A stretch of 64,000 nt of DNA, from contig QPFY01000006.1 of the NCBI GenBank assembly GCA_003665825.1, forward strand, positions 682,001 to 746,000, in the 5' to 3' direction. Below are positions 1 to 41,547 of the stretch, one piece after another. The stretch comes from Microbotryum silenes-acaulis. Lineage: Eukaryota > Basidiomycota > Microbotryomycetes > Microbotryales > Microbotryaceae. The translations under genes were made by a program, and so were the position numbers. Every line of letters starts with the position of its first letter. Within the stretch, counting starts at the first letter, position 1. The notes beneath the pieces are model-generated. The model saw only the letters and a program-made list of their open reading frames with translations, was not told the origin of the DNA and ran no database searches.

Positions 1-125
1 GCACCTCATCCCATCGCCACCTCGAGCTCGCGACATCCGAAGCGGTCGTCGTGGAAGCTCTGCAACGAATACGGGACAAGTTTTCTCAAGAAATGGCTGC
101 CGCATGCAGCATAGCTACGGATTCG
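1..125 (+). CDS. possible 3'-terminal or internal exon fragment, partial
   Basis: One frame is open from the left edge to a good splice donor (gtaagt at 126-131) and reads as ordinary protein with a helical stretch (ELATSEAVVVEALQRIRDKF). I do not recognise it. The following 80 bases contain no obvious continuation, and the next recognisable sequence is repeat DNA and a Helitron remnant, so this may be an exon of a gene that starts outside the window or a fragment of a mobile element. Confidence 0.25.
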
Positions 126-200
126 AGTAAGTAACTTCATGAACTGTGCTCTTGGTGTGGGATTGTTCAGGAGCTAATGGAAAACTACCAAGCAGCAATT

Positions 201-603
201 CCCTTCAACAGGTCTTCTTTGAATGTCAACCCTCGAGTTGTTTCTTCACCATTAGCTGGTGACACTGCATGCGTGAGTTATCCCTTGACATGGCTGTGCA
301 GTCTTAGATATGACGGAAAACCTGATACGAAAAACAGACATGGGACGTCAGTGACACCGCGGAAGGATTGACTTCGTACGGCTGAGATTCCGGGTCCATG
401 GGACACTTCCCTTCAACACGTCTTCTTTTCGAGTTGTTTTCCTTCACCATCAGCTGGTGACACTGCATGCGTGAGTTATCCCTTGACATGGCTGTGCAGT
501 CTTAGATATGACGGCAAACTGATGCGAAAAACAGACATTGGACTTCAGTGACACAGCGGAAGGATTGACTTCGTACGGTTGAGAATCCGGGTCATTGGGA
601 CAC
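201..603. repeat. two-copy imperfect tandem duplication (~200 bp units)
   Basis: Unit 1 (about 201-406) and unit 2 (about 409-603) both begin cccttcaac and end tgggacac, and share a long near-identical core (gctggtgacactgcatgcgt ... ggaaggattgacttcgtacg) with small indels and substitutions. No convincing coding sequence runs through it. It lies directly 5' of the Helitron helicase remnant and could be part of the same element or an older insertion. Confidence 0.75.
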
Positions 604-843
604 TAAATGTGAGTCTTCACTGCCATTGCTACAGATGGACAACAGCAAGAATACTGATAGTTGTAACGAATTGCGCAAGAAAACGGGCTCTGGTTCCGTG
701 AATTGCGGCTCACCATCCCGTGGCAGATCCTCAACGGCTCGGTTCGGTGGAGTGACCTTCGTGTTGGCAGGTGTGTGCCAATCTTTCAAAAGCAAAACGC
801 AGGGCAGCATGACTAACTGACCGGTTGGACTGTAACATCACAG

Positions 844-1250
844 GGGATTCGTGACCGAAACGGAACGGGCAAACGCACAGGACTTTGCAGATTGGCTCTT
901 AGGAGTTGGAGACGGCTCGGCGAACAAAACAGAAGACTTTATCGCGCTCCCACGTGAGCTTCTCCTGCCGGCGACCACGAGGAACAGATCCAGGTTGATT
1001 AGACACGTTTATCTCGGCCGAACTGGACAATATGTCAGTAGGCGAACAAGTCGAATACTTCCGAGATCGAGCAATTCTGGCGCCCAAAAATTCGCAGGTG
1101 GATCAGATCAACGACATGGTGCTCGACCTGCTGCCGGGTGACGCTCAAGCGTTCTACAGACCCAACAGTACCGCAGCTGTTGCAGCAAAGTCCATCACAT
1201 TGCAGCGGGTCAACGGTTACGGTGGAGGTGGCGCGCGGAGCGCGCCGCCG
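844..1250 (+). pseudogene. Helitron PIF1-type helicase C-terminal fragment, frameshifted
   Basis: Two overlapping frames together read as the C-terminal part of a Helitron RepHel helicase. The first (from about 844) carries DFADWLLGVGDG followed by an I-LP element, and the second (from about 1020) carries [20 protein letters not shown], which matches the family's eRaILapkN..Vd.iN segment. The switch of frame near 1010-1030 and the absence of the Rep nuclease and of the Walker A and B motifs upstream show it is a decayed 3' fragment. It runs straight into a Helitron-type terminus. Confidence 0.75.
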
Positions 1251-1257
1251 CACCTAG
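1230..1257 (+). mobile_element. Helitron 3' terminus (hairpin plus CTAG)
   Basis: A perfect GC-rich stem (GGCGCGC at 1230-1236, GCGCGCC at 1240-1246, loop GGA) is followed after 7 nt by CTAG (1254-1257) and then T. Helitrons end in a short hairpin a few nucleotides before CTRR and insert next to T. Its position immediately 3' of a helicase remnant in the same orientation makes coincidence unlikely. The 5' TC end is not identified in the window. Confidence 0.7.
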
Positions 1258-26328: not shown

Positions 26329-29300
26329 CAGGGCTTCGCATTAGATCAGATAGATGCCTATCTATATCTACACCTCCTATAACTATCGTTCATCTATCTA
26401 TATGGCCATAGCTCATAGATAGACAGATACGCTTGGACGTAACTACGCAGATATCTAAAGCATCTGCCAGGAATACACGTCGAGGAGACAGGTTGTCCAT
26501 GGTCAGAGGGGTTCAAGCATATTCAAGAAGCATATCCGCTTAAGTTTCCAAGACCTTATCAAGTCATTGGCTTGGCTCCGAACGGTGGCGGTGAGACAGA
26601 GGCCGCCCTCCCGGCTGCCCGTTATGCCCTACTAGTTCGGTCGGCTTCTATCTCGGAAGCGAAGCAAAACATTGCCTATCTTGAAGGCATGAGGCCTGAG
26701 AATTGAGCTCCTGAAAGGAAATGGGCAAATGAGCCAGAAGATTTTGGAGTCCGCATATTGCCACTGGTCGTCTGCCGGTTTCACTTCTCCCCTTTCTAGT
26801 ACCTCCCCGTCTTCTCCCTCTCTAGCTCATAAATCCCCAAACCCCTCATCTTGCTACAACATGGCTACTCCTACTGCCGCAGAAGATCTTGTCGCCACTG
26901 TCTTCAGCACGGAGGCGGAAGCAAAAGTGTTCTACACCGAGCTTCGGTCTGCTGGCCCCGAAGACCGATTGCAAGCGAGGTGCGCCGACGTTGCTCGGGC
27001 CTTCCTTTTCTCCCGGACCTCGGGAAAGTGGGATCATTTCGATGTCGTCGTGTTTCAATCGAATGGCAAATTGAAGATCCGAGCAACGTGCAAGACTCGT
27101 CCAGCCTCTCATTGCGAAACCGTTGACTTCGAGACCGCACACCAACACGGCGTATCGAACTGGAACAGGGGCATCAAACAATGCCTGGCATCCAGGGGGG
27201 AAGGGGCGAACACGGTTAGTTCGCTTGAAATAATGTTTGCAGGCTGTTACAGCAGGTCACTAAAGATTTTTCTGTCTTGTACTTTCAGAACGTGCAACCA
27301 TTGCTTTCTGCTGCAATCTTCGACAATGCATTGTTCATGTTATCCATCGTTCTTCACGTTGCAATCTCGAAGGAAGCGTTCACCCACGTAGACCCCCAAC
27401 TTCAAACCTGGCTCGCCTACTCCTATCACTTCGCCAATGTGAATGCTATCCTCGGTAGTCACGACACCGTCAAGAGGCTACTCGTTCATCTACATAGGGA
27501 GCTGTCGGTTCAATTCGGCGAATTTCTTGTCAAGCGAAATCGCGGGAATCATCTGGTTATCGATGGTTGGACCGCTCCCAACTGCATCAGTGTTCTCGGA
27601 GTCGTCGTAGTGTATGAACAAGATGGCGTCGTTCATCGTCACATACTCAAGTTCATCGAGTCGAAAGGTCGCCACGGCGGGAAAGAGCTCGCAGCGTCGC
27701 TTCATGAATGCGTCGAAGAGTTCAAGATCTCGCATCTCGTTCGAACCCTCGTGATGGACAACGCCTCGAACTGCAACAAGATGGCGGTGGAGTACAAGAA
27801 CCTCAATGACTCGTGGTGGGGACCCGAGATGCGAGTTCGCTGCTTCGCCCACATTCTCCAGCTAGTGATGGGCGCACTTTACGCTGCCTTTTCCATGGCC
27901 CCTGCTCGTCCGCCTACTCCTCGGGCGCGCAAGAACACGACTGGCAAGCATATATCTGCTTTCGACGGTCATCCCAACGTCGAAGATGATTCGGATGCTG
28001 AAAATCAGAGGATCGACGACGAGATTGCTCAAGCTCTGTCCATTGCGACTGCCTCTGGTGACTACGACATTTCAGCATTGGAATTTACGGTGAACAATTC
28101 GAAGACTTGCTTGAGAGAGGCTTTGGATTGGGGCGAGTCGGTCGGCATCAAGATTCAACCCATCCTTCGACGAAAATGCATGACCATTATTCCTACGATC
28201 GCCGATTTTGCACAACACGTTTCGGGACTGAGAGTCAAATCCTCCGACAAACACAGATGGCAGCAGTCGGTCGTTGCCACCGCCAAGGACCGACCCGATT
28301 CCAAGGCGACGGAGTTTTCCCGTAAAAACGAGACGCGTTGGAACTCTATTCACCTCTGCCTTCAGATCCATGTTCTGTTCTCGAGTGCCATCGACTACTA
28401 TATGGCGCGCGACGACACACCCTCGAACATCGTGGACAAATTCGCCCTTCCTGATGACGCACTTGATATCGTTAAAGAGCTCCTTGACATTGGCGAATAC
28501 CTCAAGACCCTGACGGTTCAGTTCCAAGATGCAACGCCTCGCACTTGGGATGTCATCGCCGAGTTCGAACGAGTTGAAGGCATGCTTGACAACAAGGCTC
28601 AAACCGCTTCTCCCATGGTGCGCATCGCAGCCAAGTCCGCTTTGATTGTTCTGGGCAACTACTACTCGAAGGTTGGCGACGATTCGATTGCTGCATTTGG
28701 GTCGATGTTCTTTCATCCTCGTCACCATCTGCGATTCTTTCAGCGACCTGGAACTGCTTGGGCCGAAACCGATATCAATGAGAAGCAGAAGAAGCTCCAT
28801 GAAATCTACAAGAAGGTGTACCTTCCTCTCTATGAGGACATCCCCGAAGCTGGTCCTCCGTCCCCGATTGATTCCGATGCTTGCTCCGACCACGATTTGT
28901 ATGGTGATGAAGGTGACACACAAGGCTCTCACAACTACTACGAGCCAGATGCCTTCCTCCAGTACTGGGCTAGGGGATGCGTCAGACTGAACAAGAACGA
29001 CGGCTACAAGGGGTGCCCTATCAAGTATTGGGTGACACAACGTGCGATTCCAGGGCAGAAGGCTCTTGCCGAGATGGCAATTGACTTCATCACAATTCCA
29101 CCAACTGCGTGCGATGCGGAACGCGCTTTCTCCACCGGCCGCCGGACGATCAACTATATGCAGCACAGCACCTCCGCCGAAGTTCTGAACGCCAAGATGT
29201 GTCTCGGTAGCTGGGCTAACCCGACCGCTCCTATCTTCGGGGGCACCCCCGAGGGCTTCGCTCGTCATGCCCGACCCATCATCGCAAGTGAGTTCAAATG

Positions 29301-30043
29301 AGAGGAGTCATGCTAGCCCCAGCTACTTGCAGCGACTGAGGACCCAATAATCTTTCTTGCAGGCAAGCTCCGTGCTCCATCGAAGCGTGTCGTGGCAAAG
29401 AAGAGTTCTTCGGCAGTCCACAAAGCGAATAAGCGGCAGCGCCACAACGTCACTGGAGAATCCTCGCGATCGACCTCGCTCTCGCAAAATTCGCCGATTG
29501 AAGAGCTGGAACTCTCAGACACGGACGAAGAATCGTCTTGAGCACTACCCAAGTATGCAACAGAGTAAATCTTCGTTTCTCCCATGTACATAATAAACCC
29601 TCAACAACATATTTTCTCTCTGTTTCTCTGTTTCTGCCCCTTCATAGATTTTTCAACCGAGTCCTCTAGCTTTCCCTCATTTGCACTTGCTCTCCGTCGT
29701 CTGTCAATAGAATACAAGGCACGGCTGCCATTCTGCCACTTCGTCGAGTTTTTCTGGCGGCAGCTGGAGAGATCTTGTCATGGCTGCAAAGGCCTTTTGT
29801 GTCGAGGACAAGGGAACAAGGGTCCGCCCTGTCATATCTATACACGCACATCTATGCATACCTCCACACATCTAGTCATCATCTATCAAGTGGCGTTTAT
29901 CTACGTAGATATCCACTAGATATCTATCTTTCATCTATCTGTTCTGCTGTAGATGACAGATCTATAGATAGCCCGAAAAAAGGCAAAATTATAGATAGAT
30001 AAAAGATATCTACGCGCATATCTGATCTAATGCGAAGCCCTGC
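26329..30043 (+). mobile_element. hAT DNA transposon, 3.7 kb, apparently full length
   Basis: The left end CAGGGCTTCGCATTAGATCA (26329) is matched by the reverse complement of the right end (…tgatctaatgcgaagccctg, ending 30043). The match extends for 24 bases. Both subterminal regions are dense in the words atctat/agatag (26346-26460 and 29820-30010), typical of transposase binding sites in hAT elements. The element encloses one open transposase gene. The flanking octamers differ (taggggac left, ccagtgag right), so no target-site duplication is visible. Confidence 0.88.
26861..29541 (+). CDS. hAT family transposase
   Basis: Cut-and-paste transposase. Exons 26861-27214, 27289-29287 and 29363-29541 join without frameshift or stop to 843 residues. 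RNase H-like core residues sit in HLVIDGWTAP and LVMDNASNCNKM, with the conserved RCFAHILQLV following. The C-terminal dimerisation domain is complete: YWVTQRAIPGQKALAEMAID, then TIPPTACDAERAFSTGRRTI and AKMCLGSW. An acidic/Ser-rich tail with basic patches (KRVVAKK, NKRQRHN) is added by exon 3. No clear BED finger is seen at the N-terminus. An alternative upstream ATG at 26729 would add 44 residues. All diagnostic residues being present, this copy may be active. Confidence 0.92.
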
Positions 30044-30051
30044 CAGTGAGT

Positions 30052-30392
30052 GCCAGTGCAGTGTTGGAGTGTCGGCAACAACTTGTCCGAGTCGTCCGTC
30101 GGCGCGAGTTCGGTGTGGAGGTGCTCGAATGCCGAACGTGACTGTCCTGGCTCGCTTCTCGAAGCGCGCTCGGACTCGGCTCGGATCGCCACCCCCTTTT
30201 GACCTTTGGCTTCTCCCCACCCACACACCTCACAGCCTCGCTCACGGCCTCGCTCACAGCCATCTCACCAAAAATGTCGACCGAAGGAAAAGTTGTAAGC
30301 TACAGTACACAGCTGTTTTTGACCATGTTCCACGTGCTGATGTAGCCTCTCGCGTCGCCCATTCGATTGACCGCCCCACCTCGATCCTCATC
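30052..30392 (+). repeat. duplicate of the SFA1 promoter, first exon and intron 1
   Basis: Nearly identical to 34455-34767, the 5' flank of the formaldehyde dehydrogenase gene. It includes the ATG (30274), the codons MSTEGKV, the gtaagc donor, and the intron up to cacctcgatcctcatc. Differences are a 4-bp insertion (ccca repeat at about 30220) and an extra ~28 bp near 30343-30370. It starts 9 bp from the end of the hAT element and ends where F-box gene sequence begins. Confidence 0.9.
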
Positions 30393-30993
30393 TCCGGTGC
30401 TCCTGTCACGCGCACTCGTTCGAAACGGCGTGTATCGACTGCTTCACCAGGTCCTGCCGCTGGCGCTGCGAGTCTCCTGGCACTTGCTGGTCCTAGTAGT
30501 AGTGTCGCTTCGGACACGCGTCTCTCATCGGCGGCCACGAGTCAAGCCCAGACGGCTAGTTCACATACGAGCCTCGTCACGACTACCGCGTCGCCCGCGA
30601 AAACCTCACCACACCCTCTCCCGCGCACAAAATCCGAAGCAATGCCTGCGGCGAACCTGGAGCCCATCAGGGCCGCTGGTACGCACGCGAATCGCCGCTT
30701 CGGACTGTTTTCATGTAAAGGGACGGTTGGATCGACGACAAAATCTGGCACAAGCCTCGGGCACATCACGGAGTCGAGGTCGAGTCTTACTTCACACACT
30801 TCATCGCACACGAACCTTCAGTCAACCTAAAAGAACCTTGTGCCGGCTGCTCATCCGCTAACCAATCTCCGACGAGCAACAATTGGCACGGATCATACCG
30901 CGATTCGGACGCCCTCGGCGACAGTTCAGCCTGGCACGCTCACCGCACCAACTGAATGCTTAACAACGGGTCGCGCACAGATTAACCCGCTGC
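30393..30993 (+). pseudogene. broken copy of an F-box gene N-terminus
   Basis: Closely similar to 39437-40028, the first exon of the F-box gene downstream (both read APVTRTRSKRRVSTAS at the start and AQINPL at the end). In this copy the frame is ended early by a stop at about 30828 (LQST then stop, where the other copy continues LQSTPKNLAPA), and it stops abruptly before the F-box itself. The duplicate of the SFA1 first exon sits directly upstream, so any transcript would be chimeric. The F-box frame is not in register with MSTEGKV through the only obvious acceptor (gtag at ~30347), which would instead open a different 171-codon frame ending at 30861. Confidence 0.8.
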
Positions 30994-31044
30994 CTCTTCC
31001 GTCCCGTTGCCTGCGGCATTAAGCCCAAGGACGACTCCCAACGC

Positions 31045-31450
31045 ATGGCCAAGCGTTCTCTCACCGGTGACATCGTCGGCGCCGCGGCCGAGGTCGTAGC
31101 CGACGCCGCCGTCAAGCTCCAAGCCGTCGCCGACCTCGTCGTCCCCGGCATCGGCGAAGTCGCCGCTTCGGTCTGCTTGGTTGCTGAGGCTAGCGTCGAT
31201 GCCAAGGTCCTTGCTTTGAGTTCGGTTAAGGGTGGTCTCGAAATTGACCTGACCGCCTTCGCCGACGTCGCGGTGAGTTTACTTATCCGTCTCACTCGAT
31301 AGCCCTCTGTGCTGTTCGTTCGGAGCCCCTAACTCTTTCGCGTGTTCCACCCTCCGTGTCCCATAACGTTAGGCCTCGACCTTCGTCTTGATCGCCATCG
31401 ACGTCGAAGCCGCCATCGCACAGGGTATTCCCATCCCCGGCATCTTCTGA
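31045..31450 (+). CDS. small Ala/Val-rich hypothetical protein
   Basis: Exons 31045-31272 and 31372-31450, joined at gcg|gtgagt…gttag|gcc, give about 101 residues. It begins MAKRSLTGDIVGAAAEVVAD, is strongly Ala/Val/Asp-rich with amphipathic periodicity, and ends with a more hydrophobic stretch (TFVLIAIDVEAAIAQGIPIP). No cysteine pattern or signal peptide. The frame is also open upstream of the ATG (KPKDDSQR), so it may be the 3' end of a longer gene whose 5' part was replaced by the chimeric repeats. Codon use is strongly C-ending (gtc, gcc, atc), typical of highly expressed genes here. Not recognised. Confidence 0.5.
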
Positions 31451-32183
31451 TCGAGAAATCCTCGTCATCGTGATCCCCCGAGCGTCGCGCTCTCAACATT
31501 TGAACCTGTGCCCTCGGTCTGGGCGCACCCTTCACCACCTATACCCTAACCTCCTCTATCTTAGTTTCGTCCCAACTCGGGAGAAGACTTAATAATCTTT
31601 TTTCGTTCGAGGGGTCTTTATTGCAAAAGGGGCTGTCTGTCAATGGATGGGTTTGATCCCCTAACACCACTAAGTTGCGCTCCGGTCCGAGCTTTAAAAA
31701 CTGCCTCCTGCCTGTAAGGCCTGGTCGTCTGGCCTTGCAAGTAACAGGATACTAGCATGTATTCCAAAGAATAAACTGGTCAAAGGAGAAGGTAGAGTCT
31801 ACTACTTCCCTGCGGTGCTTAAGGCCAGACGCGCGCGTAAGGCCGTGATTAATTACCGGGTATTACAGCCGATCCACAAAGCATGCAACGGTCCGGAGCT
31901 CATTGCACGAGTGTTTGAAAAGTCCAGCAACATGCAACGGGCAGGATGTTTATGAATGGAGAACATTTCATATGCTGTAATTAATGTGTGTTTTACCTCC
32001 ACTCAAATCATGTAACCGTTCAATTCTCCTGATATATGGGTTTGGATTTCATCCTCCCCTAATTTAACGGGTTGCCACTGATAAGAGGAGATTGTGAAAA
32101 GATTATGTACATGGTTTGATAAGCTTAATTCATAAAGAGTTGCCCTAGGTGCGTTTCCTAGAGTTGGCGATGATTCCACAGCG
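31451..32183. other. intergenic, no gene seen
   Basis: 733 bp between the small hypothetical gene and the 3' end of the mannosyltransferase gene. It is AT-richer than its surroundings. No coding frame or transposon terminus is recognised. Confidence 0.4.
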
Positions 32184-34147
32184 TTAGGCCCTGAGCTCCT
32201 TGAGGTCACTCAGCACCGCTGCCCCTAAAATCCTTGTATACAACTCGTCGAAACCCAACCCCGAATCCGTCTTAACCTCCTCCAACTTGATCATATTATC
32301 TACCTTCAGTGACCTCATGCACCAAGGGAACATTTCGGTTGCCCAATCGACCGTACCGGAACTGTAAACGGTCGGGAGGAAATAGTCCGAGGTAGCGTTG
32401 TGCTTGTTTTCGAGGAGGGAGCAGTTCCACCAAAACGGGCGACCCTCTGTCACGAGCAGAAAGAAACAGACAGTCAGTGGTCCAGTATTGCGTCTTTCAT
32501 TCAAGAGGCTCACTTCGATCGAGATGAAGATGATGCTCGCTACACATCTCAGGGGTTGAGACTCCGTCTGATCCAGTAAAGTAGGTAATGTGCCCGATCG
32601 TCGAGGCGAAGGGTGGATCGAAATAGTGTGTCGCGATTTGAACCAATGCTTTATGGTCAGAGCACATTCAATCAAGGTTAGACAGACGGGTGAAGATTCT
32701 CACAAGGTACTCCCGCGAGCTCGAAACCGATCCTGTGAGATATCGGACCGCCTCAATTAGCTCCGACTCCGCGGCTTTCCTGAACTTGGTCGTGCCGCAC
32801 TGACCAGTAAGACTCCTTGTCCCCAAGAGTCATCCGGTACATCACTGACATCCTCACTTGCCGCGTGTTGAGCCACCCGACAAAGGCCAGTCCCAACACG
32901 ACATCCCGTCTCCCTTTATCGACCACGACGACCCCCGATTCCATCTCCTCCCTCGACGCTCTGTCCTTCCACCATCTCGACTTGTTCAACATCGCACTCG
33001 GCACACGATCCTTCATCACGCCTTCGAACCAAATATGGACCGCAATATCGTCAGGCAACAATTCACGATCCCTAAAGAACAAAGTACCGGTTTCTCGATA
33101 ACCTGGATCTTGGAGGAGCTCATTCGGGTCCTGCATGAAGACGACGTCGGCATCGACGAGGATCGTCTCTTTGAAGGGCGAGACTAAGAGCGAAAGGTTT
33201 GATCGCATAACTGCCATTCAAGATACCGACATGGTCTTCGGGGAAGACGTGAAGGAGGTCGAACACCTCGACGTCAGGAGAAAGGGACTTGAGCTTTCGT
33301 TAATTATCCGGGGAGAGATCGTCCGGCCCGGCATGGACGATGAGGATGGGCAACGTGGTCAAGTGCACTTTCTTGAGCGTCGTAATGAGGTGCAAGGCGT
33401 ACTGTGAGTCGAGAGCATACCTTTTCAGCCTACTAACAAATCGTTTGGGTGGGAAGATTTTCTCGCTCACCCGTAAGTACTTGTTCGAACAAGGCAAGAG
33501 GATCCCCTTCGGTCGAGTGAGCTTGTCGATAAGCTGATCGAATGATCTCGAACCCTCTCGGGCTGAGGCGATGTAGGGGAACAATTTAGCGAAGAGCGAA
33601 TCACGAAGGTCGATTGCGGAGTTGATGATCACGTCTACTTTGGTGCTGGGTAGGTCAGGACTAATTGGAGTTCGTGTGAAACGATCCAAGTCCTGGTGGG
33701 ACGCATCAAAGCTAGGTGGATGAGCCCGAACACGGCGCGAGGAGATGTCTCAGATTCACTTACGAGCACGACCTTGACGTGATTGGCAAACACCCCAATA
33801 CTCCAAGGCAGAATAGAGTCTACGAGATTGATCGACCGGTCATGCTGATCGAGTAGCGTCTGGTACTGCCGCTCGAGCTCGTCCAAGCTGGTCGCAACCG
33901 GCGTGCCGGCGTTCGCGGAGGACCCTGTCTGCCACCATTGTGCTGTCTGAGGGTGGTGATAGACCCGCTTCAGGTGGTGGGTCGCAAAGGGCAGTAGATG
34001 ATATAGTGTGAAAACTATAAGAATGCCCGAGACTAGATGGCGAAGTCGACGATAACGGCTAGGTCGAGATGAGGCGGTGCTGGGGGCAGACAGGGGTAAT
34101 TCGACTCGGGACGTTGAATAAGTAGTGACACGCAGTTTATCAATCAT
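32184..34147 (-). CDS. MNN1-type alpha-1,3-mannosyltransferase
   Basis: Golgi type II membrane glycosyltransferase predicted to add mannose to N- or O-glycans from GDP-mannose. From ATG at 34147 there is a short cytosolic tail, then a signal anchor (LVSGILIVFTLYHLLPFATH, about residues 38-57) and a stem. The catalytic domain, spread over several exons, shows LHLITTLKKVHLTTLPILIV, the donor-metal motif LVDADVVFMQDP (D-x-D), FRDRELLPDDIAVHIWFEGV, ESGVVVVDKGRRD and the C-terminal GRPFWWNCSLLENKHN. The order matches the MNN1/TTP1 family. Stop at 32184. Introns lie near 33760-33690, 33300-33215, 32810-32680 and 32520-32460; exact joins not all verified. Divergent from SFA1. Confidence 0.87.
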
Positions 34148-36643
<2,496 letters not shown>

Positions 36644-37094
36644 GCCGAGGACGAGTGATATTGAAAAAGGCATTTTGGATCAAGGTTGAGGGATCGGATC
36701 AGAATGTGTGCAGGAGGGTTTTGGCGGAATTTATTGCACGAATTGCTATGATTGGAATGGGTAGTTTCGGTTCGAGAGAACGCGTTTGAATCCGGCGGTC
36801 TGCTCCGTGTCAGGCTCCGAGTAGGCACTGTAGTGTGTGCTGCAGCGGACAACACACGAATACACTGCCTGCCTATGAGCAATCGTTGACCTCGAAAGTC
36901 CCGATTACTATGACACTGAAAAACAATTTCCAATTTGGTTACCGCTCGACGCTTTCCTGAATTAGTAATCACACACCCCGGCTCACGCCGATCGCCGTGA
37001 CGCGGCCGGCTTCGCAACCGAGCATGCCTCCCCTCCGTTCGTGCTCAGTCCACCATCGCATCCCACCCGACGTCAGACCATCTACCGATCCGTC
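36644..37094. other. intergenic SFA1 to C1D-like gene
   Basis: 451 bp on the same strand as both neighbours: 3' flank of SFA1 and promoter of the next gene. No coding frame supported. Confidence 0.4.
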
Positions 37095-38290
37095 ATGTCT
37101 CTCACCGAAGTGGACCCTTCCAAAACGCTCGAAACGCTCTCGACGACCGTAGACCAGCTTGAAGCGACGCTTGCACCGCTCCTCTCCTCGTGCACCTCCC
37201 TCACAGACCTCTTCGCGCAACTCGAGACTCAGCGAACGGGGGTTTCGCCTATCGAGAGGGCACATGCGAGGATCGCGTTGGCGTATACGGTGCATGATTT
37301 GATTTGGGGTCAGTTTTGGAGGAAGTGAATCACTTGAGCGTGGACTGTGCAGTTACTGATGCGCTTATTTTGGCTGTTTCAGTCTATTTGAGAATCTGCG
37401 CAATCGACCCGGCGACTCATCCTGTCATGACAGAATTGGTACGTTCCGGAACCACCGCATCCGTATCCATCCATTACTTGAGACTAAGTCTTCCTTTCGG
37501 TTGTTTCCCACAGACTCGTCTCAAAAATTACTTTTCGAAATTGCACCGCGCCGAACCGACTATACTCCAAACCAACCAAACCCAAACCGAAAATGAAGCC
37601 GGTCCTTCAACCATCTCCATCAACGATAACGGACGAAGGACGAATTTGGACATTGACGCAGCAACGAGGTTCATCAATGCTGCGATTGGGGGGAAGAAAA
37701 GGCTCGATCCGAAGGGGAAGCATACGAGGTTTGATGGAGAGGAGGGGGAGGAGGAAAACGGGAGTAGTAGTAGTGCAAGTAGTGAGCAAGAGGTGGCCAA
37801 GAGTTTGGGGAAGAAGGAAGGAAAGTCGGAGGCGAAGAAGCAGGTCAAGAAGGTGCCGATGGGGAGACCCAAGATGGATCCGTTCATGGGTAGGTTTCTC
37901 GCCGGCAAAATGATTTTCATACATTCGGGCGGGCAAAGACCACTTTCATCTGATCTTAACTTGCATTTGTCTCGTACAGGCTTCGATGATCAGACGACCT
38001 CATCCAAACCCAACGAAAAGGAGGCCAAGTTGAAGGGCAAATCTGTCGAGGCCACACCCACGACGACCTCCAGCGAAGGCAAGAAGAAGAAGAAGCGAGC
38101 GCTGTCCGTGTCCAACGTCGAACCGACATCTACATCAACGTCGACGGCACCTCTCTCAAAGCACCAGAAAAAAAAGTTGAGACTCAAGGCGGGTGGAGGG
38201 CTGCCGGGAGAAGGTGTAGGATCGGGCTCGAACGATGGGGAGGGGAAGAAGAGCAGCCCGAAGAAGGTCAAGAAGGCGACCAAAGAATGA
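37095..38290 (+). CDS. LRP1: exosome cofactor Rrp47/Lrp1 (C1D family)
   Basis: Nuclear RNA-binding partner of the exosome nuclease Rrp6, needed for 3' processing of rRNA and snoRNAs. Four exons: ATG at 37095, then joins DLIW|VYLRICAIDPATHPV, TEL|TRLKNYFSKLHRAEPT and PFMG|FDDQTTS. The Sas10/Utp3/C1D domain spans the first ~105 residues: LDQLEATLAP-like helix (TVDQLEATLAPLLSSCTSL), AHARIALAYTVHDLIWVYLR, then the LKNYFSK helix. The C-terminal half is Lys/Ser/Glu-rich with nuclear localisation-type blocks (KKKKKRAL, KHQKKKLRLK, SPKKVKKATKE), as expected for Rrp47. The acidic and Lys-rich inserts make it longer than yeast Lrp1. Confidence 0.85.
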
Positions 38291-39433
38291 AAGATCAGCA
38301 GTGTAGAGGATATGCGCAATCATCGCAACTATGTGGTCACTTGTCACTTGCTTAAACATGAAGCTGCTCCAAGTGGACGCGGCGTCGCGGAGAGAAGGGT
38401 GAAATTAGGTGAATAGAATACAACACGCAGCGATCTAAGGCTTGGGTGATTGTGGTAACATAAAGTCAAGACAAGCCGTACGACCCTTTCCACTCAACAC
38501 GCGGGCGGTACGACGTACCTCCGGTCTCCCGTGTTCCTCGCCGGACCTGGTGGCACCTATAAAGAGCACTATACATGTCGCACGAAAACTCGGCTCCTAT
38601 CAGATCTCCTGAACGAACGGCCGTCAGCTGCGCAGAGCTATCAATTGGACCGAACCCGCTTACAGAATACGAAAGGCGTTCTATCTTCCCTTCATGCCAC
38701 CATCAGTGTCCCGTCAGGTCTTGTCTTTCAAGACGATTTGGTAGCGAAGCACATTTGGCTCTCTCGCGCTTGCCACTTCGATCCCGACGAGCTTCGTCTG
38801 CTTAGATTCACAGGGCTATGTTCCGCTGGCGAGGGAGTGCAGGCGGGACCACATCGCGGATTGAATACATGTATCCACTCCTTACTCCTGACAAGGAAAA
38901 AGATGGCCGAAACGGAATGCAAAGAAGAATATATCAGACGCGTCCACTGGGGTGTCGAGGACAAGCACTGTGTGCGATACTCACCTGCAACCGATCCGAC
39001 GATATCAACCTCCAGCCAAATTCGATTACACGTTGACTCTGGGAAACCCTTTGGCTTTGTTGATTCTGGCTTTCATCTTCGAGCACATTATCCTACCCTT
39101 CTCTGCAAACGGTTTTCTTTTGTACGGACATTTTCGCGATCCCCGCGCGCGGATGTCGTCGAACCTTGATATTGCTGTAAGACGTGCTGATTCTCGGTCT
39201 GCTGGAGGGGACTGCCCATGGGGGAGAGTTGAGGACTGCTGTTTGGTTCGCTGAACGCCGCCAAAAGCCGAAAATGAAATCAGAATGAAAAGAGACGGAA
39301 GCTGCCCGGTCTCGGGCTCGACTCGCACCGAGTTCGCACTCTTGCCCCTGTCTCGCGTCTGTGCTCGAAGCGCGACACGAACACGCTCTCTTCTTCACCG
39401 CTTCCCTTTCCATCTTTGGCTCACGGTCCCATA
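38291..39433. other. intergenic region with one long open frame of doubtful status
   Basis: A 212-codon plus-strand frame (38531-39169) lacks an ATG before codon ~125 and has no family feature. Minus-strand frames are fragmented. I see no supported gene. The last 300 bases are the presumed promoter of the F-box gene. Confidence 0.35.
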
Positions 39434-41100
39434 ATGTCCGATGCTCCTGTCACGCGCACTCGTTCGAAACGGCGTGTATCGACTGCTTCACTAGGTCCTG
39501 CCATTTGCGCTGCGAGTCTCGTGGCACCTGCTGGTCCAAGTAGTGTCGCTCAGTCGGACACGCGTCTCTCATCGGCACCCACGAGTCTAGCGCAGACGGC
39601 TACTTCACATACGAGCCTCTCCACTACTACCGCTTCGGCCGCGAAAGCCTCACCACACCCTCCCCCACGCACGATATCCGAAGCACTAGCTGTGGCGAAC
39701 CTGGAGCCCATCCGGGCCGTTGACCCCGACGCGAATAGCCGCTTCGGAGTGGTCTCTTGGAGAAGGACGGTCGGATCGACTACAAAAGCGAGACCAAGCC
39801 TCGGGCATATCACGGATTCAAGGTCGAGTCTTACTTCAAACACTTCTTCGCAAACGAACCTTCAGTCAACCCCAAAGAATCTTGCGCCGGCTGCTCATCC
39901 GCCAACCAAACCCCGACGCAACCCAATACATACCGCGATTCGGACGACCTCAGCGACAGTTCAGCCTGGCACGCTCACCGCACCAACTGAATGCTTAACA
40001 ACGGGTCGTGCACAGATTAACCCGCTGCAGGTTGCAAACCTTCAACCCGGCCACGGCGCGGCCCAGCGGATTGTTCGCACTCAAGAACTTGAAAAAGGGG
40101 AGGTCGAGCATGTTCCGTCTCGACATTGGCCAGCCGACGTTATTCGCATCGTCTTGACCTTCTTCTTCATCGATGAAGCGCTGCAAAATGCGTCAGTATC
40201 ACCCACCTATTTCTCAACGTCCGTTTACTTGGAACTGAACACTTGACTAGGTACGCGCTAGGTACGCGCATGACAGACCCGCGTACCGAAGCCGCCTGAA
40301 CTGCCTCTTGGTCAATCGAACTTTTGCGCAGGTCGTACGTACTTTTACTAGTTCTTGTCTGGATAGGCAAGATAGTCAGAAGCCACCATATCTGGCTAAT
40401 CCTGTATACTGCCGGGGGTTGACTGGCTTTCACAGGGCCGCCCTCTTTTCTATGCGGACATCTATCTCTCGTCGTACGGTCGAGTAAAGGCATTCGCGAA
40501 AAGAGCTTCTTCCATTTCCCACCCTCACATCGGACCCTGGGTATGGAGACTGTGTCTCGACGAACTGGGCGAATGCCGATCTCTCGAGAACCATCTACCA
40601 TCAATCCTCGACAATTGCGCCTCAGTTCGAAGTCTGGCGATCGTGGGTTGCTACCCAGTACCGATTTGGCAGATTTTGTATGCGAAATTCGGATCCACCA
40701 CCGAATCGACCACCGAATCGATTAGCGGATCGCCCACCGTATCGATCCGTCCGCGGCATTTCGAAGCGTCTTTCATGGCCGGTGAGGCCCAAGGCTGCTT
40801 CGCCCTTCTCAGCGCTCTAGGTCCAGAATTGGAGACTTTGAAGATGCGGGATCTGCGAATGGTGACAAGCGAGGCGATCAAGCTAGTGGCGCCAATCTGG
40901 CGCATGAATGCATTCACGGTAAGTAAATTTGCGCGCTGAACATCTGAACTAACGCTAAAGTATCTCACATCACGCGTAAAGCCGCTGGCACGGCCTCCGT
41001 TTGTTCCGACCGGAGGCCTCCGTGAACTGACACGTGCAGACGGACACGTCTCAGCCGAATTCATGTTCGCCATTACACAGAACTGCCCATTACTTGAGAC
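39434..41100 (+). CDS. F-box / leucine-rich repeat-type protein, 5' part of an interrupted gene
   Basis: Exons 39434-40191, 40277-40331, 40436-40918 and 40982-41100 join in frame. The first ~210 residues are Ser/Thr-rich with an RTRSKRR basic patch. An F-box follows: HWPADVIRIVLTFFFIDEAL joined to SRLNCLLVNRTFAQ and GRPLFYADIYLSSYGRVKAF. Then come repeated leucine-rich segments (VRSLAIVGCYPVPIWQILYA; LGPELETLKMRDLRMVTSEA; MFAITQNCPLLET). Such proteins are substrate receptors of SCF ubiquitin ligases. The frame stops at a splice donor (41101), and 33 bases later a 7.8-kb transposon begins. A compatible continuation follows on the far side. A short imperfect repeat encoding STTESTTES (40695-40725) is present. 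Confidence 0.75.
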
Positions 41101-41146
41101 GTGAGTTTAGTCGAGTTGCACGCCCACAGCAGCAGCAAAATGGCCA

Positions 41147-41355
41147 CGCGCGCGAACCCGCTTAAGGATTCGCCCGAGATTACGTGCGCTTAACAGCGCT
41201 TAACGGTGCATAAGATGTGCATAAGGACGCATACGCGCGCGGCTGAATTGAGCGAACCTCATAATCCGCGCATAGCCAGCGCTGCGATGACTCGCCCTGC
41301 TTAAGGATCGCTTAACGCGCGCTTAACGTTTGACCTCGCTTACACTTCGCATACG
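41147..41355. repeat. left subterminal array of GCTTAA/GCATA words
   Basis: Irregularly spaced repeats of cgcttaag, gcgcttaac, ggtgcataag and gcatacg in both orientations over about 200 bp, with no coding potential. The same word family recurs inside the right end of the element. Probably transposase binding sites. Confidence 0.7.
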
Positions 41356-41547
41356 TAACTGCGAAGCCTGTACTTGCACACGAGCGGGCGGATTGCTTTC
41401 TTGACCCCAACAAGTTTCTGTGCTAAAATCCCATCAAAAGGCGCTTCACTTGATTTTATTCAACGAGGCTAAGGAGCATATATTCAGGAAGTAGTTGGTC
41501 CATATAACACCGTAATTTCTACAAAAATAACTTTCCAGCAAAATCTA

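What the first reader, a model, noticed from the sequence alone, without database searches (positions are those of the whole stretch)
30052..31450. Chimeric locus built from three unrelated gene pieces
Within 1.4 kb, a copy of the SFA1 promoter plus first exon and intron 1 is joined precisely (at tcatc|tccg, ~30392) to a copy of the first exon of the F-box gene now at 39434, which stops at 30993 and is followed by a small Ala/Val-rich two-exon reading frame. Both parent sequences are in the same window. All pieces are in the same orientation, which places foreign coding sequence under a strong housekeeping promoter. This is the layout expected from Helitron-type capture, non-homologous repair or promoter hijacking, and could be a new gene in the making.
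Basis: partly seen in the sequence, partly recalled or inferred. Interest (0 to 1): 0.75.

Follow-up and report, generated by a model that had tools for sequence, protein, structure and literature searches.

The report
Repair-built patchwork of dead gene fragments
In an anther-smut fungus, pieces of three genes were copied and joined end to end beside a jumping gene, most likely by faulty repair of a DNA break; it looks like a genomic scar rather than a new gene.

Summary
The patchwork is real. 30051-30392 copies the promoter, exon 1 and most of intron 1 of SFA1; 30393-30993 copies 5' coding sequence of the gene at 39434; from 30993 come the last two of six modelled exons of a gene whose full copy is at C6:70386, ~640 kb away. 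The organism is a Microbotryum relative.

It looks inert: the middle piece has two in-frame stops, the adjoining mannosyltransferase copy is broken, and no frame shows constraint. Helitron capture, TIR capture and retrocopying each fail a tested feature. A complete hAT element ends 8 bp to the left and lacks its 8-bp target duplication; 4 of 5 scorable other copies have one, though three copies sharing its right flank also lack it. The SFA1 copy starts where the foreign block meets real SFA1 (TGCCA), which fits break repair by serial copying, with joins of 0, 1 and 5 bp.

Divergence differs by piece (0.3%, 3.0%, 13.8%) and junction-near edges look younger than cores, so it was not one clean recent event; this stays unexplained. 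A 178-aa spliced frame under the SFA1 promoter is possible but lacks support.

The parts
26329..30042 (+). hAT transposon with both ends; transposase ORF 27277-29301; TIR CAGGGCTTCGCATTAGATCAGAT at both ends; no target-site duplication (taggggac / ccagtgag)
   Evidence: (PF05699)
30043..30050 (.). ccagtgag between hAT and the SFA1 copy; ccagtgagtgc is shared with the right flank of hAT copies on C21/C35/C46
30051..30392 (+). copy of SFA1 promoter, 5'UTR, exon 1 (MSTEGKV, 30274-30294) and intron 1 less its last 6 bp
30343..30369 (+). about 26 bp present here but absent from SFA1 intron 1; supplies a possible acceptor TAG at 30343-30345
30393..30993 (+). pseudogene copy of 5' coding sequence of the gene at 39434 (alignable from its ATG, 30390); two in-frame TAA
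30993..31695 (+). last two exons, intron and 3' flank of the gene at C6:70386; 97% to 31492, then diverged
31712..32080 (.). two dispersed short repeats (about 155 and 215 bp), many copies
32171..34339 (-). broken copy of a mannosyltransferase gene (PF11051), 93-94% to the C11 copy, 84-85% to C6:71.2-73.5 kb
34340..34462 (.). edge of the foreign block, 2 substitutions in 123 bp from C6:~73.4-73.5 kb; ends at TGCCA where SFA1 homology begins
34455..36500 (+). resident SFA1 (donor of first piece); read to 36500 only
   Evidence: TIGR02818 above cut-off
39434..41100 (+). resident donor gene of second piece, four-exon model, no Pfam match

Best explanation
An inert mosaic made by DNA-copying break repair beside a hAT element. 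Inferred course: the chromosome broke in the SFA1 upstream region at TGCCAGTG, next to the hAT. One end carried or re-copied the first ~310-340 bp of the SFA1 region. Synthesis then jumped to the gene 4.7 kb further on (0 bp shared), then to an exon of a gene ~640 kb away on the same contig (1 bp shared), ran on into the adjoining mannosyltransferase block, and was rejoined to the SFA1 upstream end through TGCCA (5 bp). Shown: the pieces, their order, orientation and joins, the missing hAT target duplication, and the broken frames. Inferred: the break, the template switching, and that more than one episode or donor was involved.
For: The donors are still present elsewhere, so pieces were copied, not moved. 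Joins of 0, 1 and 5 bp. Intron sequence kept, so not RNA-derived. One copy listed in the genome. The SFA1 copy begins at the base where the foreign block meets resident SFA1 (30051 / 34455; block ends at 34459), which an insertion at one break explains. The hAT 8 bp away lacks its target duplication, while 4 of 5 scorable other copies have a perfect 8-bp one. Decay: two in-frame TAA, broken mannosyltransferase copy. Donors are on the same contig, the cis bias reported for gap filling at TIR elements (PMC8277862, passages read).
Against: Divergence differs by piece: 1/312, 15/500, 82/595 (Fisher p 0.013 and below, which used 14/500), so one recent event from the donors as they now stand is excluded. 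Cores of the second piece (~17%) and of the mannosyltransferase (~15%) are far off while junction-near edges are 1-4%; this is not explained. The left join is ambiguous: ccagtgagtgc is also the flank of the C21/C35/C46 hAT copies, which likewise lack a target duplication, so counting those three the controls are 4 of 8. No reciprocal hAT flanks were found. The 0-5 bp joins were not tested against chance.
Confidence: 0.6

Rival explanations
1. Tandem duplication of 34455-40028 with the C6:70-73 kb block caught at the duplication joint, followed by a 4.7-kb deletion in the first copy (SFA1 intron 1 to the start of the 39434 gene) and later gene conversion of the SFA1 part.
For: Same order and orientation as the donors; coincidence of 34455 with the end of the foreign block; similar divergence of the second piece (13.8%) and the mannosyltransferase block (15.0%).
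Against: SFA1 copy 0.3% vs second piece 13.8% (p 8e-15) should be equal; needs separate conversions of SFA1 copy, third-piece exons and block edge.
Confidence: 0.2
2. Capture by a Helitron or by a hAT/TIR element (Pack-TIR).
For: A Helitron 3' end is in the window at ~1254 and a full hAT lies next door; the genus is reported to carry Helitrons (PMC10502011, passages read).
Against: No Helitron-type end near the chimera in the scan, which asked for perfect stems of 7 bp or more; no hAT TIR to the right of it at up to 2 mismatches; no second copy listed.
Confidence: 0.05
3. A young functional gene driven by the SFA1 promoter: MSTEGKV spliced at a chimera-specific acceptor (30343-30345) to a 171-codon frame ending at 30861.
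For: Frame open for 171 codons; three stops of that frame in the resident gene are absent here; simulation from the resident gives P 0.003, shuffling of the resident's codons 0.002.
Against: Dinucleotide shuffle of the stretch itself gives P 0.032 for one of several frames; starting from the chimera, three or more stops arise in 38% of simulations; changes at codon positions 22, 33, 27 show no constraint; the 51-bp intron is shorter than each of the 9 listed (57-104 bp); no Pfam match.
Confidence: 0.05
4. Assembly artefact joining unrelated reads.
For: Dispersed repeats flank the region.
Against: The second and third pieces carry their own substitutions, and the second its own stops, which a mis-join of existing sequence would not create.
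Confidence: 0.04

Closest known systems
Gap-filling / template-switch duplications at TIR transposons (single-copy Pack-TIRs; Tan et al. 2021, PMC8277862; outline, passages and Discussion read)
   Same: Single-copy gene fragments beside a TIR element, donors on the same chromosome, joins with little or no shared sequence.
   Different: Fragments lie outside the hAT termini, not between them; three fragments in series; fungus, not animal.
Templated insertions and segmental duplications from broken-fork repair (FoSTeS/MMBIR type; named from general knowledge; yeast example PMC2518615 seen in search listing with start of abstract only)
   Same: Serial copies in one strand sense with 0-5 bp joins, donors kept.
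   Different: Uneven divergence with old cores and young edges; no experimental link to replication here.
Chimeric retrocopy (recalled, no call)
   Same: Fusion of fragments from several genes.
   Different: Introns are kept in the first and third pieces.

Membership tests
Helitron gene capture | 3' hairpin followed by CTRR-T at the element's end | tested here: not met
   Scan of both strands of the window (perfect stems of 7 bp or more) finds one such end only, at ~1254.
Helitron gene capture | More than one copy sharing ends | tested here: not met
   Four places listed in the genome, none a second chimera.
Pack-TIR / Pack-hAT | Captured fragment lies between two TIRs flanked by a target duplication | tested here: not met
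   Only two TIR matches (up to 2 mismatches) in the window, both left of the chimera; no target duplication.
TIR-associated gap filling | Single copy, donors in cis, short shared sequence at joins, transposon at the break | tested here: inconclusive
   Single copy and cis donors met; joins 0, 1, 5 bp, not tested against a chance model; adjacency to the hAT met but a break at the hAT is not shown.
Retrocopy | Introns removed | tested here: not met
   SFA1 intron 1 sequence and the third gene's last intron are present.
RIP-mutated duplicate | Excess of C-to-T at TCG | tested here: not met
   Middle piece 39 transitions vs 43 transversions; 3 of 82 changes are TCG/TTG or CGA/CAA; a simplified index (no tetranucleotide correction) is below 0 for each of six stretches.
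New protein-coding gene | Transcript across the joins | not testable with these tools
   No RNA data on hand.
New protein-coding gene | Constraint on the reading frame | tested here: not met
   Changes by codon position 27/22/33 (parent frame), 22/33/27 (alternative frame).

The most novel reading that the evidence does not exclude
A gene being born from scraps: the copied SFA1 promoter and exon 1 are spliced, through an acceptor found in the chimera but not in SFA1, to an alternative frame of the captured second piece that lacks the three stops its donor has there, giving a 178-aa arginine- and leucine-rich protein unlike its parents.
Probability: 0.05. Interest if true: 0.75.

Novelty: new member of a known kind. 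Interest (0 to 1): 0.3.

Why it matters
It is a readable scar of patch repair in a fungus, with donors in place, so joins, donor distances and dates can be compared piece by piece. The pattern of old cores and young junction edges, if real, would ask how repair chooses between diverged copies. As a functional gene it has no firm support yet.

Tried and rejected
Helitron capture, TIR capture, retrocopy and RIP: each failed a tested feature. Simple crossover between hAT copies: patterns for the two expected reciprocal flanks gave 0 matches each at up to 2 mismatches; not decisive, since they may have been lost. Idea that the hAT on C21/C35/C46 is a simple insertion into a retroelement: of 20 matches to its right flank, none outside the three loci themselves covers the first 4 bases, and the four copies that I read match from the 5th or 7th base, so that hAT also seems to sit at a join. 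Relatives of the 39434 protein: none at E 0.001 among 3017 candidates with the 270-aa first ORF; that search takes only proteins of 0.55-1.75 times the query length, and my four-exon model has 476 aa, so full-length relatives may have been missed. Only two places in this genome. The introgression idea for the diverged cores could not be tested; the mannosyltransferase tree puts the C6:71 kb copy with M. lychnidis-dioicae (97% aa) and the C11 copy outside that pair, on a long branch. One search's alternative-frame simulation used a wrong frame and is superseded. One search used 14/500 for the third piece where one search's bins sum to 15/500, and an approximate denominator (2150) for the mannosyltransferase core. 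Literature: searches for Microbotryum with Helitron (14 papers), chimeric gene (1), template switching (2), hAT transposon (0) and two general searches on template switching and templated insertion (39 and 26 papers, 20 and 12 of them listed); no described case of this locus was seen in those listings.

Full report
What is there. The window is C6:682001-746000 of a 29.85-Mb genome in 88 contigs. The C6:70 kb gene product finds one homologue, in Microbotryum saponariae (81%), and the C6:71-73 kb mannosyltransferase is 97% identical in amino acids to one of M. lychnidis-dioicae, so this is a Microbotryum relative. A genome search with 30052-31450 lists four places: itself, SFA1 (C6:716456), the 39434 gene (C6:721434) and C6:70386-70843. 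Three pieces, three donors, one orientation.

The pieces. SFA1 piece 30051-30392 ends 6 bp before the end of SFA1 intron 1 (SFA1 identity by TIGR02818 above its cut-off). The second piece is alignable from the donor's ATG (30390), matches without a mismatch at its first bases from 30393, and ends at 30993 inside the donor's modelled exon 1. It has two in-frame TAA. Homology with the C6 block continues past two dispersed repeats through a mannosyltransferase gene to 34459-34462.

The surroundings. A hAT element with both ends, 26329-30042, ends 8 bp left of the SFA1 copy. The genome search for its right part listed 33 matches, partial ones and itself included, and a right end was read in 28 of 30 fetched loci. 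Left flanks were checked for seven other copies; five had both ends in hand, of which four have a perfect 8-bp target duplication and one does not; in two the left end was not caught. The window copy and the three C21/C35/C46 copies have none, so counting those three it is 4 of 8. These three share ccagtgagtgc on the right with the window copy; there it borders a reverse-transcriptase-like repeat (reading by eye).

Joins. First to second piece: 0 bp shared. Second to third: 1 bp. Foreign block to resident SFA1: TGCCA, 5 bp. The SFA1 copy starts at 34455 and the block ends at 34459, so both sides meet at one spot. The simplest reading is an insertion at a single break in the SFA1 upstream region, in which the first 312 bp of that region (342 bp in the copy) appear on both sides.

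Dates. SFA1 copy 1/312; third-piece exons and intron 15/500; block edge 2/123; second piece 82/595; mannosyltransferase block 15.0% from C6:71-73 kb but 5.7% from C11. Of the five comparisons made, four are significant (p 0.013 or less) and one, block edge against SFA1 copy, is not (p 0.19). Within the second piece the first 58 sites hold 2 and the last 71 hold 1 of 82 changes (shuffles p 0.007 and 0.0002, edges chosen after seeing the data). The protein tree puts the C6:71-73 kb copy with the M. lychnidis-dioicae protein and the C11 copy outside that pair, so the diverged core may be an older lineage of that gene, or a fast-evolving one. I do not have an explanation for old cores with young edges; later conversion, a lost allele, or several repair episodes are all open.

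Function. Unspliced, exon 1 meets a stop after 23 codons. If intron 1 were spliced at the TAG at 30343-30345, which SFA1 lacks, a 178-aa frame results. Its openness is unusual against simulated descent from the resident (0.003) and shuffled resident codons (0.002), less so against dinucleotide shuffles (0.032) or simulated change from the chimera (three or more stops in 38%). Changes show no codon-position bias in either frame. The adjacent mannosyltransferase copy is broken. I therefore read the locus as inert, with expression untested.

Comparison. It works like gap filling at TIR transposons (PMC8277862) but is not a Pack-TIR, since the pieces lie outside the TIRs. It shows no Helitron-type end, keeps introns unlike a retrocopy, and is not RIP-altered.

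Noticed in passing
window 1-1257: Helitron with a typical 3' end (ggcgcgcggagcgcgccgccgcacCTAG/T); a relative lies on C11 at L070:824-2359, and further ends in L065 and possibly L028.
   Followed up: partly
window 32171-34339; L070:2667-5071; L005:5208-7509: Three copies of a mannosyltransferase gene (PF11051); the window copy is broken; the C11 copy shares a dispersed repeat with the window copy and lies ~300 bp from the Helitron end.
   Followed up: partly
L067-L069 (C46, C35, C21): hAT copies without target duplication sitting at a join between unrelated sequence and a reverse-transcriptase-like repeat; share 11 bp of right flank with the window copy.
   Followed up: partly
window 31712-32080: Two adjacent dispersed repeats of ~155 and ~215 bp, many copies, mostly at 76-83% with one at 93%.
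   Followed up: no
window 41130-41400: Stretch rich in gcttaa/cataag motifs just after the modelled end of the 39434 gene (by eye); that gene may itself be truncated.
   Followed up: no
window 27277-29301: Long open hAT transposase frame (674 aa) in a family with many copies at 97-99%, so possibly recently active.
   Followed up: no
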